Source: a virus. From it: a stretch of DNA of 43,884 nucleotides. Each line of letters opens with the position of its first letter. The first letter of the stretch is position 1. Both the position numbers and the translations under genes were made by a program. This document shows, piece by piece, positions 3,652-14,152 of the stretch. The DNA lies in IMG/VR virus record IMGVR_UViG_3300045283_000058, positions 1 to 43,884 of that record. One strand, given 5' to 3'. The notes below the pieces were generated by a model, which saw nothing but the letters and a program-made list of their open reading frames with translations, was not told the DNA's origin and did no database searches.

Positions 3652-3909
3652 ATGGACTTCCTGGCGATGGCCGTCCGCGATGCCCGATTGACGTTCAACT
3701 CGACGAAGGGGGTGATGACCTCTGCACACGACAGGATGCTCATGTCAAGACTGCGCTCTGAAATCGGTGATGCAGCAGTAGCCGGGGGCAGCGCATCCGG
3801 CGAGTCTCACGCTGAGGAATCGATCTGGATCGAAATGCCGGGGGCTGGCCCTGAATTTCAGGAACAGCAAAGTGGGGGCGGGCCGTCGCGCGGAGCGGAG
3901 GAGGCATGA
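3652..3909 (+). CDS. hypothetical protein
   Basis: An 85-residue protein whose ATG follows the previous TAA directly, with GGAGGA about eight bases upstream. The N-terminus is helical; the C-terminus is low-complexity, rich in Gly, Ser and Glu (GGSASGESHAEES). It ends eight bases before the first Y-RNA-like unit, so the RNA cluster may be processed from the same transcript. Function unknown. Confidence 0.5.
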   Translation: MDFLAMAVRDARLTFNSTKGVMTSAHDRMLMSRLRSEIGDAAVAGGSASGESHAEESIWIEMPGAGPEFQEQQSGGGPSRGAEEA

Positions 3910-3916
3910 AGGATTC

Positions 3917-3984
3917 TGCGGCGTGGTGTAGGACTCGGTTACTTCTTGCTATGACGTACCGGGTCCGCCAACTTTCCCGCCGCA
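3917..3984 (+). ncRNA. Y-RNA-like RNA, unit 1 (no tRNA-like domain)
   Basis: First of three related RNA units. A perfect 7-bp closing stem (TGCGGCG at 3917-3923 with CGCCGCA at 3978-3984) encloses blocks shared with the other two units: TGGTGTAG just inside the 5' strand, CGGTTACTTCT in the centre, and CGCCAACTTTCC just before the 3' strand. TGGTG can pair with CGCCA, and CGGT with ACCG. The closing stem differs in sequence from unit to unit but keeps its pairing, which is covariation within one locus. By position upstream of a Ro60 gene and homology to unit 3, it is probably a Y RNA lacking the tRNA-like module. Confidence 0.65.
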
Positions 3985-3995
3985 ATCGTGTAGGG

Positions 3996-4064
3996 CACGC
4001 CGTGGTGCAGAGGGCGGTTACTTCTTCTGCAAAGACAACCGTTCTCGACAACTTTCCCGGCGTG
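3996..4064 (+). ncRNA. Y-RNA-like RNA, unit 2 (no tRNA-like domain)
   Basis: Second unit, 11 bases after the first. A perfect 7-bp closing stem pairs CACGCCG (3996-4002) with CGGCGTG (4058-4064). Inside are the shared blocks TGGTGCAG, GCGGTTACTTCT and CGACAACTTTCC. CGGTT can pair with AACCG, and TGCAGA with TCTGCA; these two would cross, so only one may form or they make a pseudoknot. It has no tRNA-like insert. It is likely a bound partner of the downstream Ro60 protein. Confidence 0.65.
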
Positions 4065-4072
4065 GTGTTCGT

Positions 4073-4205
4073 GGCTGCGTGGTGTAGACGGCGGTTCCTT
4101 CTGTGTCGCGGGTTCGATTCCCGTCAGTCGGGTTGTCCGGCTGTAGCTCAGTGGTAGAGCAAGAGGCCCGTAAGGGTTGACCGTGGTCGCCAGTTTCCCG
4201 CAGTC
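4073..4205 (+). ncRNA. Y RNA with permuted tRNA-like domain (YrlA type)
   Basis: The closing stem GGCTGCG (4073-4079)/CGCAGTC (4199-4205) and flanking blocks match units 1 and 2. The middle holds a tRNA-like domain in permuted order: anticodon-stem strand CTTCT (4098-4102), T arm GCGGG-TTCGATT-CCCGT (4108-4124), acceptor strand CAGTCGG (4125-4131), a GTTGT loop, acceptor strand CCGGCTG (4137-4143), TA, D arm GCTC-AGTGGTA-GAGC (4146-4160), then AGAGG (4162-4166) pairing with CTTCT. The acceptor stem forms 7 of 7 pairs with one wobble. A CCC-GTAA-GGG hairpin (4167-4176) and CGGTT/GACCG follow. This is the arrangement known for bacterial Y RNAs, which mimic tRNA and tether Ro60 to polynucleotide phosphorylase. 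It ends 19 bases before the Ro60 start codon. Confidence 0.85.
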
Positions 4206-4224
4206 GTTCTGAGAGAAGGAGCGC

Positions 4225-5541
4225 ATGAGAACGAATCGATCCGTCACGCTGCCGCCGGTTCATACGCACGAAGGCGCTCCGGCCCGGCATCTCGCGCCGT
4301 TGCAGGAACTGCGGCGCACGGCGCTCTCCGCGTTGCTCTTTGAGGACACGTTCTATGAGAAGGGCGGCGCGCAGGCGGAACGGGCGGCGGCGCTCATCGC
4401 GCAGTGCAGGCCGGAGGATGTGGCGGCGCTCGCGGTCGAATGCCGCTCGCGGATGTATCTGCGCCATATGCCCCTGTTTCTCGTGCGTGAGCTGGCGCGG
4501 CGCAAGGGCTGCGGGTCGTTCGTCGCGGCGGCGCTGGAATCCGTGATTCAGCGGCCCGACGAACTCACCGAGTATCTGGCGATCTACTGGAAGGATGGCC
4601 GTCAGGCGGTGTCGGCAGGGTCCAAGCGCGGACTGGCGCGCGCCTTCCGCAAGTTCAACGCCGAGACGCTGGCGAAGTACGACCGCGCCCACGCCGTGAA
4701 GCTCCGCGACGTGCTGCGCATCGTTCACAGCAAGCCGTCGTCCGCCGAGCAGTCGGCCGAATGGAAGGCGCTGATCGCGGGCGAACTGCCGTCGCCGGAT
4801 ACGTGGGAAGTCGCGCTCTCTGGCGGCGCTGACAAGCGAGAGACGTTCGAACGATTGTTGAGGGAACGGAAACTTGGCGGGCTCGCGTTCCTGCGCAACC
4901 TCCGCAACATGATCGGCGCGCAGGTCGATCCGGCGCTGATGCGCGAGCGGTTCGCGGGCGGGTTCGGCAAGGTGCTGCCGTTCCGGTTCGTCGCCGCGCT
5001 CCGCTATGCGCCGCAGTTCGTGCGCGAGCTGGACAGCGCCATGCAACGGTGCATCGCTGACTTGCCGCAGTTGCCGGGCACGACCGGCGTACTCGTTGAC
5101 GTGTCGGGCTCAATGGACGCGCCGCTCTCCGCGAAATCCGAGATGAACCGGATCGACGCGGCGGCCGGCCTCGCCGTGCTCGTCTCAGCAGTTGCGGAGT
5201 ATCCGCGCATCTTCACGTTCTCAGAACGGCTGGTCGAGGTGCCACCGTTCGCCGGGTTAGCGCTCGTCAAGACGATCCACGACTCCCAAGCGCACAGCAG
5301 CACGTATCTCGGCGCGTCAGTCGCGGCGCTCAATCAACAGCGGCTGGATCGCCTCATCGTCATCACGGACGAACAGTCGCACGACGCGGTGCCGAATCCG
5401 ACCGCGAAGGGCTACCTGATCAACGTCGCGACCTATCAGCATGGCGTCGGCTATGGGCCGTGGGTTCACATCGATGGCTGGTCAGAACGCGTGATCGATT
5501 TTGTGCGCGAGTACGAAGTGGCGAAGGCGGAGGCTCGCTGA
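4225..5541 (+). CDS. rsr: TROVE-domain RNA-binding protein (Ro60/Rsr ortholog)
   Basis: A 438-residue Ro60-type protein. Residues about 25-270 are the helical-repeat TROVE ring (FRKFNAETLAKYDRAHAVKL and LGGLAFLRNLRNMI are typical TROVE segments). Residues about 285-430 are a von Willebrand A domain with a MIDAS metal site: DVSGSMD at 292-298 and the later Thr/Asp positions near SSTYLG (358-363) and ITDEQ. Ro proteins bind misfolded RNA ends in the ring and Y RNAs on its outside; in Deinococcus the complex works with polynucleotide phosphorylase. Length is slightly short of animal Ro60 (about 540) and typical of bacteria. AAGGAG lies five bases before the ATG. The adjacent Y RNAs make the assignment firm. 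Confidence 0.92.
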   Translation: MRTNRSVTLPPVHTHEGAPARHLAPLQELRRTALSALLFEDTFYEKGGAQAERAAALIAQCRPEDVAALAVECRSRMYLRHMPLFLVRELARRKGCGSFVAAALESVIQRPDELTEYLAIYWKDGRQAVSAGSKRGLARAFRKFNAETLAKYDRAHAVKLRDVLRIVHSKPSSAEQSAEWKALIAGELPSPDTWEVALSGGADKRETFERLLRERKLGGLAFLRNLRNMIGAQVDPALMRERFAGGFGKVLPFRFVAALRYAPQFVRELDSAMQRCIADLPQLPGTTGVLVDVSGSMDAPLSAKSEMNRIDAAAGLAVLVSAVAEYPRIFTFSERLVEVPPFAGLALVKTIHDSQAHSSTYLGASVAALNQQRLDRLIVITDEQSHDAVPNPTAKGYLINVATYQHGVGYGPWVHIDGWSERVIDFVREYEVAKAEAR

Positions 5542-6008: not shown

Positions 6009-6460
6009 TGGGGAAATTCGATCATCTCGGGCAGACCTTGGCAGAACAGCGGGCGATCCCGTGCGCACCGCCGAAGTCCATTCCGACACCAGCGCGGAAG
6101 GATGAGGAGCGGCACGCGAAGAAGCTGACGGACGACGCGTTTCGGAAACTGATTTGGAAACTGGACGGCGGGAAATCGCGCGCTACGGGGAAACCGCTCG
6201 CGCATTCCGGGACGACATCCTGGCACGAACTCGGAGAAGTCGATCACAGCATTCCGCGCTCGCTCGCGCCCGATCGGATCTACGACCCGTCCAATGCGCT
6301 TTTGTTGAGCAAGTGGGAGAACCGGATGCGGAAGATTCCCTGTATCAGAGCGCCGGAGTTCAAGTACTTCGATTACAGCGGGCCGGATGATCGTCGGCGA
6401 CCGCAGACGTTCGTGTGGCGCGATGACGACGGCACGGTTGTCAAAACGAGGATCGGATGA
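6008..6460 (+). CDS. HNH endonuclease-like protein
   Basis: A 150-residue protein with an HNH core at residues 73-105: HELGEVDHSIPRSL, then PSNALLLSKWEN. D79-H80, N96 and N105 match the metal and catalytic positions. The zinc-knuckle cysteines common in the family are replaced (KSRATGKPL), giving the simpler cysteine-free form. In phages such enzymes nick or cut DNA in packaging, recombination or homing. It is far from the terminase, so a packaging role is not implied. It is coupled to its neighbours at both ends. Confidence 0.7.
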   Translation: MGKFDHLGQTLAEQRAIPCAPPKSIPTPARKDEERHAKKLTDDAFRKLIWKLDGGKSRATGKPLAHSGTTSWHELGEVDHSIPRSLAPDRIYDPSNALLLSKWENRMRKIPCIRAPEFKYFDYSGPDDRRRPQTFVWRDDDGTVVKTRIG

Positions 6461-6747
6461 AGGGGTGGACGACGCTCGCGCTCGTCTGTCTGCCCGGTGG
6501 TTGCGTGATCGGGTTGCTGTTCTGGATCCGTCGGCGCTGGATCGCGCATCTGGAACAGCAAGTAGAAGACTTGCGGATCGCCGAAGGGTTGATCAAGAAG
6601 CCCGTGCAGCGGTTCACGAAGAACGACGACGACTTGCGCGTGCGAACGAAGTTGAAGCGCGATGCCGCAGCACGGTTGAAGAAACGGGCGCACAAGGTAG
6701 AGAGCGGGGACTCGGTGAGCGACATTCTCCGCGTGGTGAATCGATGA
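6457..6747 (+). CDS. membrane-anchored coiled-coil protein
   Basis: A 96-residue protein with one N-terminal transmembrane helix (about residues 5-23, ALVCLPGGCVIGLLFWI) followed by a basic helical cytoplasmic part (HLEQQVEDLRIAEGLIKK...). It starts with ATGA overlap and ends in the ATGA of the methyltransferase. Function unknown. Confidence 0.55.
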   Translation: MKGWTTLALVCLPGGCVIGLLFWIRRRWIAHLEQQVEDLRIAEGLIKKPVQRFTKNDDDLRVRTKLKRDAAARLKKRAHKVESGDSVSDILRVVNR

Positions 6748-7478
6748 CGCCGTACTACGAGCAAGCAGGCGTGACGATCTACCACGGCGACTGCCTCGCT
6801 GTAATGGAAACGCTGACGGCCGTCGATCACATGATGACGGACCCGCCCTATAGCGAGCACACGCACGCGAAGCAATGGATTGGCTCGGCGCTGACGGATG
6901 ACGGGAAGCCGCGCGTCTCCACGGCTCATAAAGAGCTCGGGTTTGACCCGCTCAACGCAGAAACGCGGAAGCAGGTCTGCCGCGAAGCCTATCGTCTCGC
7001 CGCGCGTTGGACGCTGGCGTTTTGCGACGTTGAGTCCATCTGGCTTTGGCGAGAAGACATCCGCGCCGCGTGCCTCGATTACGTCCGAGCCTGCATTTGG
7101 GACAAGGTCGACTCCGCGCCGCAGTTCACGGGTGACCGTCCAGCGTCGGCTGCAGAAGCCATCGTCGTGGCCCACAGGCCCGGTAAAAAGGTTTGGAATG
7201 GCGGAGGCTCGCGCAACGTCTTTCGGCACGCCGTGAACGCCGAGAAGGGCGCGAAACCCCACCCGTCGACGAAGCCAGAGCCGCTGATGGCTGAACTGAT
7301 CCACTTGTTCACCGATCGCGGCGACCTGATCTTGGACCCGTTCGGCGGGAGCGGCACGACGGCTGTTGCCGCAAAACGACTCGGCCGACGCTGCATCCTG
7401 ATCGAGCAACAAGAAAAGTACTGCGAGATCGCGGCGCAGCGACTCGCTCAAGATGCTCTGCCGTTGGAGGTGGCATAA
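6744..7478 (+). CDS. DNA N6-adenine/N4-cytosine methyltransferase (beta class order)
   Basis: A 244-residue SAM-dependent DNA methyltransferase. The catalytic motif DPPY is at residues 33-36 and the SAM-binding motif DPFGGSGTT at about 198-206, so motif IV precedes motif I, the beta-class order. The C-terminus (GRRCILIEQQEKYCEIAAQRL) matches the family ending. It is short for the class, with a reduced target-recognition region. No cognate restriction enzyme adjoins it, so it probably protects phage DNA or alters regulation. The start is the ATG overlapping the previous stop. Confidence 0.88.
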   Translation: MTPYYEQAGVTIYHGDCLAVMETLTAVDHMMTDPPYSEHTHAKQWIGSALTDDGKPRVSTAHKELGFDPLNAETRKQVCREAYRLAARWTLAFCDVESIWLWREDIRAACLDYVRACIWDKVDSAPQFTGDRPASAAEAIVVAHRPGKKVWNGGGSRNVFRHAVNAEKGAKPHPSTKPEPLMAELIHLFTDRGDLILDPFGGSGTTAVAAKRLGRRCILIEQQEKYCEIAAQRLAQDALPLEVA

Positions 7479-10613: not shown

Positions 10614-11425
<812 letters not shown>

Positions 11426-11429
<4 letters not shown>

Positions 11430-13025: not shown

Positions 13026-13656
13026 TGAACACGGAACAGAAGGCGATACCGCCGAAGGCGCGCTGCGAGCATTGCGGCCGATACGCGAAGGACCATCTGC
13101 TGGTGAACTACGCGGACGGTCCACTGATCGGCCGCTCGGAGTTGATCTGCCCGACGAGCACGTTCAAACAGCAGCAAAAGCGGCGGGGGACGTAGGGCCC
13201 CGCTCAGGGCCGCCGCCGTGGATTGTGGATCTCGCGATTGAAGCCTCGGGCTGGTCGCCGTGCCGAAGCAAGCGCGGCGTCGTCATCTTCAGAGATGGGA
13301 ACGTCGTCAGCCACGGCCACAACTTCAAGCCGGAAGGGTTCGCCTGCGACGGCTCAGAGGTGTGCAAGGCGACGTGTCGCGCGGAAGCGGTCCACGCGGA
13401 GCAGGATGCGCTAATGGCCGCCGACTGGGGCGCACGGGGAGCTGAGTTGCTGCACGTCAAGAGCGTCGATGGCGCGCTCGTCGCGTCAGGCGGTCCATCG
13501 TGCGTGCAGTGCAGCAAACTGATTCTCGCGTGTGGCGTCGCTGGCATCTGGCTCTATCACGCGGACGGCTGGCAACGCTACGACGCGACGGAATTTCATC
13601 GCCTTTCACTGGCAGCGGAGGCCCGCGCAGGGCAGGAGCCGAGACATGAGCGATGA
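12847..13656 (+). CDS. zinc-ribbon / deaminase-like fusion ORF
   Basis: A 269-residue ORF. Residues 1-58 are a zinc ribbon (C13, C18, C34, C37). Residues about 60-125 read poorly and lie over a convincing gene in another frame (13025-13195). Residues about 127-269 are a cytidine/dCMP-deaminase-like domain with HAEQ (183-186) and PSCVQC (217-222), the zinc-binding HxE and CxxC pair. The deaminase may also start at the GTG at 13225. So this is either a true fusion or two genes joined by chance read-through. Deaminase activity would supply dUMP or edit bases, which is inferred from motifs only. Confidence 0.6.
   Translation: MSTNPEPAWRLKCPWPECGHEFLSAYSRLAYDSCPRCHQSVMTNKLIELPLAAPAAGGRHEHGTEGDTAEGALRALRPIREGPSAGELRGRSTDRPLGVDLPDEHVQTAAKAAGDVGPRSGPPPWIVDLAIEASGWSPCRSKRGVVIFRDGNVVSHGHNFKPEGFACDGSEVCKATCRAEAVHAEQDALMAADWGARGAELLHVKSVDGALVASGGPSCVQCSKLILACGVAGIWLYHADGWQRYDATEFHRLSLAAEARAGQEPRHER
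13025..13195 (+). CDS. small zinc-finger protein nested in another frame
   Basis: A 56-residue ORF, MNTEQKAIPPKAR then CEHCGRYAKDHLLVNYADG and a later Cys. It looks like real protein, unlike the overlapping frame. GGAGG of a GC-rich hairpin lies five bases upstream, and the stop is followed by another junction element (GGCCCCGCTCAGGGCC). It probably is the true gene of this interval. Confidence 0.6.
   Translation: MNTEQKAIPPKARCEHCGRYAKDHLLVNYADGPLIGRSELICPTSTFKQQQKRRGT
13195..13212 (+). repeat. junction element
   Basis: GGGCCCCGCTCAGGGCCG directly after the stop of the nested zinc-finger gene and before the GTG of the deaminase domain. It shows the element in its between-genes form. Confidence 0.6.
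13613..13642 (+). repeat. 30-bp junction element with ribosome site
   Basis: Exactly repeated at 14115-14144. It covers the end of one gene (encoding AEARAGQEP) and carries GGCAGGAG just before the next ATG. It supplies both a C-terminal tail and a Shine-Dalgarno site. Confidence 0.8.
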
Positions 13657-14152
13657 ACCGAACGACAGCAGGAGAGACGGAGCCGCTGTCATTAAAGCAC
13701 TGATCCGTGATGGAACCCGGCCAAAGGCGTGTCCGCTTTGCGGCGGTGAAGCGTACGCCTACTGCACGGTCAACGGCACACAGATGTTCAAGGTCGGCTG
13801 CGCAGCCTGCGGTCTCGAACTGAAGGCCGCGTGGTATCGCGACCAGGACAAGCCAACGAAGGACATTCTGACGCTGTGGAACACGCGGGCTGATTCCGGC
13901 GTCCCCCGCTCAGGGGTGCCCGAATTTGATGCGGAACGAGCGCTGAGAGAGGAATGGTGGGCGAATCACGGCTGCGCGCCCTCAGCGCAGTACGGCGACG
14001 ACAGCGAAATGCAGTGCAACGCGCTCGGGTGTATGCACGACTTCAAACGGGAACCGCTGGCGACCCTCGCCGAGTACGTGTATGACCGTCGCCTGCGACG
14101 TGCGATTGAGTCAACAGCGGAGGCCCGCGCAGGGCAGGAGCCGACGACATGA
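13646..14152 (+). CDS. Lar-like zinc-ribbon protein fused to a second module
   Basis: A 168-residue protein. Residues 28-81 resemble Lar/restriction-alleviation proteins: CPLCGG (29-34), GCAACG (51-56) and a closing LWNTR. Lar proteins modulate host type I restriction and modification. Residues 83-92 (SGVPRSGVPEF) are encoded by a junction element. The rest (ERALREEWWANHGCAP...) is a separate helical module with several Cys. It appears to be two small genes joined in frame. The start follows the 30-bp junction element. Confidence 0.65.
   Translation: MSDEPNDSRRDGAAVIKALIRDGTRPKACPLCGGEAYAYCTVNGTQMFKVGCAACGLELKAAWYRDQDKPTKDILTLWNTRADSGVPRSGVPEFDAERALREEWWANHGCAPSAQYGDDSEMQCNALGCMHDFKREPLATLAEYVYDRRLRRAIESTAEARAGQEPTT
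13896..13923 (+). repeat. in-frame junction element
   Basis: A 28-bp element with core CCCCCGCTCAGGGG, identical to 14324-14351. CCCC pairs with GGGG. Here it lies inside an ORF and encodes GVPRSGVP between two protein modules. Confidence 0.8.
14115..14144 (+). repeat. 30-bp junction element with ribosome site
   Basis: Second exact copy of the 13613-13642 element, again at a gene end just before an ATG. Confidence 0.8.

What the first reader, a model, noticed from the sequence alone, without database searches (positions are those of the whole stretch)
3917..5541. Phage Ro60-Y RNA locus with three tandem Y RNAs, one carrying a permuted tRNA-like domain
Three homologous RNA units (68, 69 and 133 nt) precede a Ro60/Rsr gene. 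Their 7-bp closing stems differ in sequence but keep pairing. Only the third has a tRNA-like insert, with T arm, closed acceptor stem, D arm and anticodon-stem strands in permuted order and full pairing. Bacterial Y RNAs with tRNA mimicry near Ro60 are known, including in phages; a three-member array with two module-free units in a P22-like phage is, as far as I know, unusual. It suggests a phage RNP that could recruit host polynucleotide phosphorylase or sequester tRNA-modifying enzymes.
Basis: partly seen in the sequence, partly recalled or inferred. Interest (0 to 1): 0.88.

Follow-up and report, generated by a model that had tools for sequence, protein, structure and literature searches.

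The report
Phage Ro60 with Y RNA array
A small P22-like phage carries a gene for the ring-shaped RNA-binding protein Ro60 and, just in front of it, three small partner RNAs (Y RNAs), one of which contains a rearranged tRNA look-alike; the pattern is real and well supported, but such arrays turn out to be common next to phage and bacterial Ro60 genes.

Summary
Confirmed. The locus is a phage Ro60/Rsr gene (4225-5541) preceded by three tandem Y RNA genes (3917-3984, 3996-4064, 4073-4205). The protein's predicted fold matches only Ro60 structures at the top of the PDB list. A covariance model built without the window or its close relatives finds units 1 and 2 at E about 2e-11. A model from all module-free units finds all three. 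In 163 Ro60 loci from phages and bacteria it gives 401 matches, all on the Ro60 strand and 393 of them upstream. Unit 3 has a true permuted tRNA core (T arm, closed acceptor, D arm); 101 comparable modules in 79 loci show strong covariation of the acceptor stem. Mechanism (inferred from Deinococcus and Salmonella): Y RNAs gate Ro60, and the tRNA-like one tethers a partner, probably host PNPase. Side findings: the last Y RNA usually ends 15-40 nt before the Ro60 start codon; several arrays have a sigma70 promoter at unit 1; some bacterial Y RNAs carry a tRNA mimic opened in the D loop. New member of a known kind.

The parts
3917..3984 (+). Y RNA unit 1, module-free (68 nt): closing stem 3917-3923/3978-3984, Ro60-side motif UGGUGUAG 3924-3931, inner stem, loop motif GGUUACUUC 3937-3945, 3' side CGCCAACUUUCC
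   Evidence: R1 54.7 bits; leave-out model R2 47.3 bits, E 2e-11; fold z -4.1
3996..4064 (+). Y RNA unit 2, module-free (69 nt): closing stem 3996-4002/4058-4064, motif UGGUGCAG 4003-4010, GGUUACUUC 4016-4024
   Evidence: R1 53.8 bits; R2 47.0 bits; fold z -4.4
4073..4205 (+). Y RNA unit 3 with permuted tRNA-like module (133 nt); closing stem 4073-4079/4199-4205, motif UGGUGUAG 4080-4087
   Evidence: R1 34.8 bits although not in the model's training set; Rfam YrlA 43.9 bits, below cut-off 69
4108..4124 (+). T arm of the tRNA-like module (GCGGG UUCGAUU CCCGU)
   Evidence: unconstrained fold, pair probability 0.90-0.99; same element in 101 modules
4125..4143 (+). closed acceptor stem, 7 bp with 5-nt loop (no free CCA end)
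   Evidence: pair probability 0.96-0.98; acceptor stem covaries in 101 modules: 89% paired against 52% shuffled
4144..4160 (+). D arm with U8-A9 linker (UAGCUCAGUGGUAGAGC)
   Evidence: pair probability 0.97
4098..4102 (+). 3' strand of the permuted anticodon stem (CUUCU), partner 4162-4166 (AGAGG)
   Evidence: exact tRNA spacing, but pair probability only 0.05-0.11; 0.9 kcal/mol above the minimum
4217..4221 (+). AGGAG Shine-Dalgarno of Ro60, shortly after the closing stem of unit 3
   Evidence: sequence; spacing conserved in viral loci
4225..5541 (+). Ro60/Rsr gene, 438 aa: ring of helical repeats plus vWA domain with MIDAS DVSGS (residues 292-296)
   Evidence: Pfam TROVE and Ro60 vWA; PHROG 850 E 6e-38; AF2 pLDDT 86; Foldseek top 13 PDB hits all TROVE/Ro60

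Best explanation
The locus encodes a phage Ro60 ribonucleoprotein: one Ro60 ring protein and three Y RNAs made from the stretch in front of its gene (identity about 0.95). Each Y RNA ends in a closing stem plus a conserved internal loop (5' UGGYGNAG, 3' CUUGUUCC or AACUUUCC), which I take to be the Ro60-binding end. Bound there, a Y RNA covers the outer surface of the ring and so gates entry of structured or damaged RNA. The two module-free Y RNAs would act only as gates or as a storage form. The third carries a permuted, non-aminoacylatable tRNA core as an effector arm that tethers or attracts a tRNA-recognising partner, most likely host polynucleotide phosphorylase as in Deinococcus and Salmonella, so that the phage RNP steers degradation or quality control of structured RNA during infection. 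Because unit 3 ends about a dozen nt before the Shine-Dalgarno of Ro60, I also expect Ro60 to bind its own leader. Shown: RNA family, structure, Ro60 fold, linkage. Inferred: Ro60 binding, PNPase tethering, gating, autoregulation.
For: Ro60: TROVE and Ro60 vWA domains, profile hits to human/Xenopus Ro60 and D. radiodurans Rsr, predicted fold with only TROVE/Ro60 structures in the first 13 PDB hits, including the Ro60 of Thermus phage phiLo. RNA: 15-pair consensus with 12 pairs changed on both sides, 92.4% of cells paired, covariation score 0.804 against 0.227 shuffled and 0.17 or less when slid; leave-out model finds units 1 and 2; 401 matches in 163 Ro60 loci, none on the opposite strand; weaker matches also beside distant Ro60 genes of Arthrobacter, Streptomyces and Gordonia phages. 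tRNA-like core: 101 modules in 79 loci. Transcription signals: sigma70-type promoter just upstream of unit 1 in 22 of 59 viral loci against 6.3 expected, often ending 2-9 nt before the unit. Mechanism by precedent: Rsr-Y RNA-PNPase complex (PMC7790460, PMC8394870, PMC9879122); three highly expressed RNAs upstream of an Rsr gene in Listeria phage CKA15, suggested by its authors to be Y RNAs (PMC12282133).
Against: No expression data for this phage; no promoter-like or terminator-like site was found near the array in the window, so the units must be cut out of a longer transcript or use an unrecognised promoter. Unit 3 is below the Rfam YrlA cut-off, and that model also rings weakly in ordinary genomes; the leave-out model gives unit 3 only 17.8 bits.
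Confidence: 0.6

Rival explanations
1. The units act mainly in cis: structured leader elements of the Ro60 mRNA that Ro60 binds to control its own translation, rather than free Y RNAs.
For: In 54 viral loci measured the last unit ends a median of 29.5 nt before the start codon, 40 of them within 40 nt, next to the Shine-Dalgarno. The window shows no promoter or terminator for separate transcripts.
Against: Multiple units with different modules, tRNA-like cores kept by covariation, and strong promoters placed to start transcription at unit 1 in relatives point to independent RNAs; some loci have units downstream of Ro60 or several hundred nt away.
Confidence: 0.15
2. The tRNA-like Y RNA is a decoy that soaks up host anticodon nucleases or tRNA-modifying enzymes, and Ro60 only stabilises it.
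For: Module keeps T loop, D loop and variable-loop spacing of tRNA; competitive inhibition of a tRNA nuclease by YrlA has been proposed (PMC7790460), and YrlA is a substrate of DusA and TruB (PMC8394870).
Against: The anticodon arm is opened and has no anticodon loop, so a decoy for anticodon nucleases is unlikely; it does not explain the module-free units 1 and 2 or the loci without any tRNA-like unit.
Confidence: 0.15
3. Remnants of a tRNA gene cluster: T and D arms in tandem tRNAs can mimic the permuted order.
For: Some phage Ro60 loci lie among tRNA genes; the YrlA model rings weakly in ordinary genomes.
Against: ARAGORN finds no tRNA in the window; the acceptor is a closed 7-bp hairpin that covaries across loci; units 1 and 2 have no tRNA part but share the core.
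Confidence: 0.02

Closest known systems
Bacterial Y RNAs: YrlA (Rfam RF02553) and YrlB of the Salmonella rsr-yrlBA-rtcBA operon; Y RNA of Deinococcus radiodurans
   Same: Encoded next to Ro60/Rsr; 5' and 3' ends pair into a stem; permuted tRNA-like domain with D, T and acceptor arms in unit 3; more than one Y RNA per locus
   Different: Units 1 and 2 lack any tRNA part and match no Rfam family; the Ro60-side stem differs from the YrlA consensus; no rtcBA genes recognised among the neighbours tested; the RNAs lie upstream of the protein gene
Candidate Y RNAs and Rsr of Listeria phage CKA15 (PMC12282133)
   Same: Three highly transcribed non-coding regions upstream of and in the same direction as a phage Rsr gene
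   Different: P100-like phage of a Gram-positive host; RNAs not structurally characterised; here a 44-kb P22-like phage
Ro60 of Thermus phage phiLo (PDB 9l5y, 9kop)
   Same: Phage Ro60, best structural and profile match
   Different: About 27% identity; only one weak core match nearby, downstream of the gene
Y RNA arrays of Xanthomonas phages Olaya and 10KY502B and of Caulobacter phage CcrColossus (found here)
   Same: Ro60 47-54% identical, 5-6 core-model matches upstream, mixed module-free and tRNA-like units
   Different: More units; annotated in the records only as hypothetical or RNA-binding proteins and tRNAs

Membership tests
Ro60/Rsr protein | TROVE ring of helical repeats plus vWA domain | tested here: met
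   Pfam TROVE above cut-off; Ro60 vWA 23.1 bits, below its cut-off 27.7; predicted fold matches Ro60 structures, TM 0.54-0.73 by query length
Ro60/Rsr protein | MIDAS motif DxSxS | tested here: met
   D292, S294, S296 invariant in 31 aligned proteins
Ro60/Rsr protein | binds Y RNA on the outer ring surface and RNA ends in the cavity | not testable with these tools
   needs binding assay or structure
bacterial Y RNA | encoded beside Ro60, same orientation | tested here: met
   units 3917-4205, Ro60 at 4225; 401 of 401 matches on the Ro60 strand
bacterial Y RNA | long-range stem formed by 5' and 3' ends with conserved internal loop | tested here: met
bacterial Y RNA | permuted tRNA-like domain (at least one RNA of the locus) | tested here: met
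   unit 3 only
Rfam YrlA (RF02553) | score at or above gathering cut-off 69 bits | tested here: not met
   unit 3: 43.9 bits; units 1 and 2: none
vertebrate Y RNA (Rfam Y_RNA) | match to the Rfam family | tested here: not met
   no match at E <= 5 in 3700-4400
Y RNA in a PNPase-Rsr complex (RYPER) | tethers Rsr to PNPase | not testable with these tools
   needs pull-down in the host

The most novel reading that the evidence does not exclude
The phage Ro60 array is a modular RNP kit: one ring protein shared by Y RNAs with interchangeable effector arms (none, plain hairpin, tRNA core opened in the anticodon loop, tRNA core opened in the D loop, half-tRNA), whose last member also serves as the Ro60-binding leader that sets Ro60 level to the supply of Y RNA. 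Composition changes between close phage relatives, as if arms were swapped to meet host factors.
Probability: 0.25. Interest if true: 0.65.

Novelty: new member of a known kind. Interest (0 to 1): 0.42.

Why it matters
Ro60 and Y RNAs are studied mainly in animals, Deinococcus and Salmonella, and why phages carry them is open. A 44-kb P22-like phage with a compact three-RNA locus points to an easier genetic system than the jumbo phages, once a cultured relative is used (for example Xanthomonas phage Olaya, a 43.7-kb phage with the same arrangement). The module-free units give a natural comparison for asking what the tRNA-like arm adds. The core model found here covers Y RNAs that Rfam misses at its curated cut-off.

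Tried and rejected
Rfam at curated cut-offs over the whole window: no match. ARAGORN: no tRNA. Promoter and terminator scan around the array: none. An attempt to find YrlA in E. coli genomes with the Rfam consensus gave no match. A strict search for tRNA modules with a closed 7-nt anticodon loop gave only two places, and these looked like neighbouring units run together; a rule-based count of D-loop-opened modules was unstable, so that class is supported only by individual folds. crAss001 and Rhizobium phage loci have at best weak core matches. The main papers on bacterial Y RNAs (Chen 2014; Sim and Wolin 2018; Sim et al. 2020; Wang 2018) are not held, so their statements are quoted from memory or from papers that cite them. 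A unit-identity table failed for units with short 5' ends and was not used.

Full report
What was checked. The window is a 43,884-base virus record with a P22-type portal protein (Pfam PF16510, E 6e-92), a major head protein and a head-closure protein.

The protein. The 438-aa product of 4225-5541 matches the Pfam TROVE domain, and weakly the Ro60 vWA domain, and PHROG 850, an RNA-binding protein family. A profile of 14 relatives finds the solved Ro60/Rsr structures in the PDB. The AlphaFold2 model (mean pLDDT 86) has as its first 13 Foldseek hits only TROVE/Ro60 structures: a TROVE domain entry and the Ro60 of Thermus phage phiLo, Xenopus and human Ro60, and D. radiodurans Rsr. The MIDAS residues D292, S294 and S296 are invariant among 31 aligned proteins. 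It is a Ro60.

The RNA family. Upstream of related Ro60 genes the same element recurs: closing stem, UGGYGNAG, an inner stem of 7-10 bp, a loop starting GGUUACUUC, then the other side of the inner stem, CGCUUGUUCC (or CGCCAACUUUCC in the window's lineage) and the closing stem. In 35 module-free units 92.4% of cells form standard pairs, 12 of 15 pairs have changes on both sides, and the covariation score is 0.804 against 0.227 in shuffles and at most 0.17 with the partners slid. The model R1 was searched in 163 Ro60 loci (1.38 Mb, both strands): 401 matches at E <= 0.01, every one on the strand of Ro60; by my count from the tables 393 lie upstream of it (exceptions in L016, L072, L091 and L096). 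About 78 of the 83 phage-type loci have at least one. Units 1 and 2 helped to train R1, so a second model was built without the window and its four close relatives; it still finds them at 47.3 and 47.0 bits, E about 2e-11, while unit 3 with its long insert scores 17.8. Unit 3 was not in R1's training set and scores 34.8 bits; the next best place in the window has 15.6. Weaker but significant R1 matches lie beside distant Ro60 genes of Arthrobacter phage Atuin and Streptomyces phage BRock.

The tRNA-like module. Without constraints unit 3 folds into a T arm, a closed acceptor and a D arm at high probability; the anticodon stem has correct tRNA spacing but is only one of two near-equal folds. 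In 101 modules of the same order from 79 loci the acceptor stem pairs in 89% of cells against 52% in shuffles, the permuted anticodon stem in 67% against 44%, and the D and T stems in over 99% (the D stem hardly varies, so it says little by itself); the T loop is mostly UUCGAAU-like and the variable loop AGGUC-like, while the acceptor loop varies in length. The modules were chosen by T-arm and D-arm motifs, not by the acceptor or anticodon stems, so those two figures are not circular. The acceptor is closed, so the RNA cannot be aminoacylated at a CCA end (inference from the structure). Rfam YrlA matches unit 3 over its whole length at 43.9 bits, but below the curated cut-off, and the same model rings weakly in 7 of 14 ordinary genomes, so that match alone would not be proof.

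How common the array is. Of 190 phage-type units classified, 98 are short and module-free, and most loci hold two or more units, up to six. In the window's closest relatives the make-up differs: L001 has a module-free unit and one with a D-half, hairpin and T arm; L002 has two units with hairpin or other inserts and one permuted tRNA; L003 two inserts without tRNA parts; L022 a hairpin and a permuted tRNA. The three-member array is therefore ordinary for this kind of locus. Published parallels: Salmonella has YrlA and YrlB in one operon (PMC9879122), and Listeria phage CKA15 has three highly transcribed regions upstream of an Rsr gene which its authors suggest may be Y RNAs, its Rsr being detected in purified particles (PMC12282133). 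From memory, Chen et al. 2014 reported likely Y RNAs near Ro60 in more than 250 bacterial and phage species with at least one tRNA-like member each; that paper could not be opened here.

Expression and regulation. The window has no recognisable promoter at the array. In 22 of 59 viral loci a sigma70-type promoter lies within 100 nt upstream of unit 1 (6.3 expected from shuffles), in many ending 2-9 nt before it, so transcription would start at about the 5' end of the RNA. The last unit ends a median of 29.5 nt before the Ro60 start codon in 54 loci, 19 nt in the window, next to the Shine-Dalgarno. This suggests, but does not show, control of Ro60 by its own Y RNA.

Mechanism. By precedent, D. 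[quoted passage not shown] I take units 1 and 2 as gating or storage Y RNAs and unit 3 as the one with an effector arm. Binding, tethering and the effect on infection are untested.

Verdict. Observation confirmed; identity as a phage Ro60-Y RNA locus about 0.95; proposed mechanism about 0.5-0.6. New member of a known kind; the wider comparison adds a core model, the leader position, and the D-loop-opened variant.

Noticed in passing
L172:3717-3851, L101:3324-3455, L154:3790-3922, L120:3789-3932, L166:3479-3624 (bacterial Ro60 loci): Y RNA modules in the order D-stem 3' half, closed hairpin at the anticodon-arm position, T arm, closed acceptor, D-stem 5' half: unconstrained folds give a tRNA core opened in the D loop rather than the anticodon loop. 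I know of no description of this form, but the main papers could not be read.
   Followed up: partly
L001:4870-4984; also L122:3803-3890 and L087:3853-3946: Half-tRNA modules (D-half, hairpin, T arm, no acceptor) inside Y RNA units; L001 is the window's closest relative.
   Followed up: partly
L011:2792-2859 (Xanthomonas phage 10KY502B) and L015:2164-2231 (CcrColossus): Annotated tRNA-Thr and tRNA-Gln genes lie inside Y RNA units (L011 unit 2787-2920 by model; L015 unit 2155-2329 by motif): probable misannotations.
   Followed up: partly
viral Ro60 loci, e.g. L001, L002, L022, L043, L066, L095: TTGACA-16/18-TATAAT-like promoters ending 2-9 nt before the first Y RNA unit, 22 of 59 loci against 6.3 expected; absent in the window.
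   Followed up: yes
L013:6345-6690 and L014:6751-7006 (Brevundimonas jumbo phages): Matches to the permuted tmRNA family RF04321 above the curated cut-off (57.7 and 60.2 bits) a few kb from Ro60.
   Followed up: no
window 6387-7478 and 10614-11429: Two DNA methyltransferase genes; 13532-14152 weakly resembles a Lar-like restriction alleviation protein.
   Followed up: no
window 3906-4157: An 83-aa open frame overlaps units 1-3 on the same strand; the paired changes in the units argue against it being the selected feature, but it was not tested separately.
   Followed up: no
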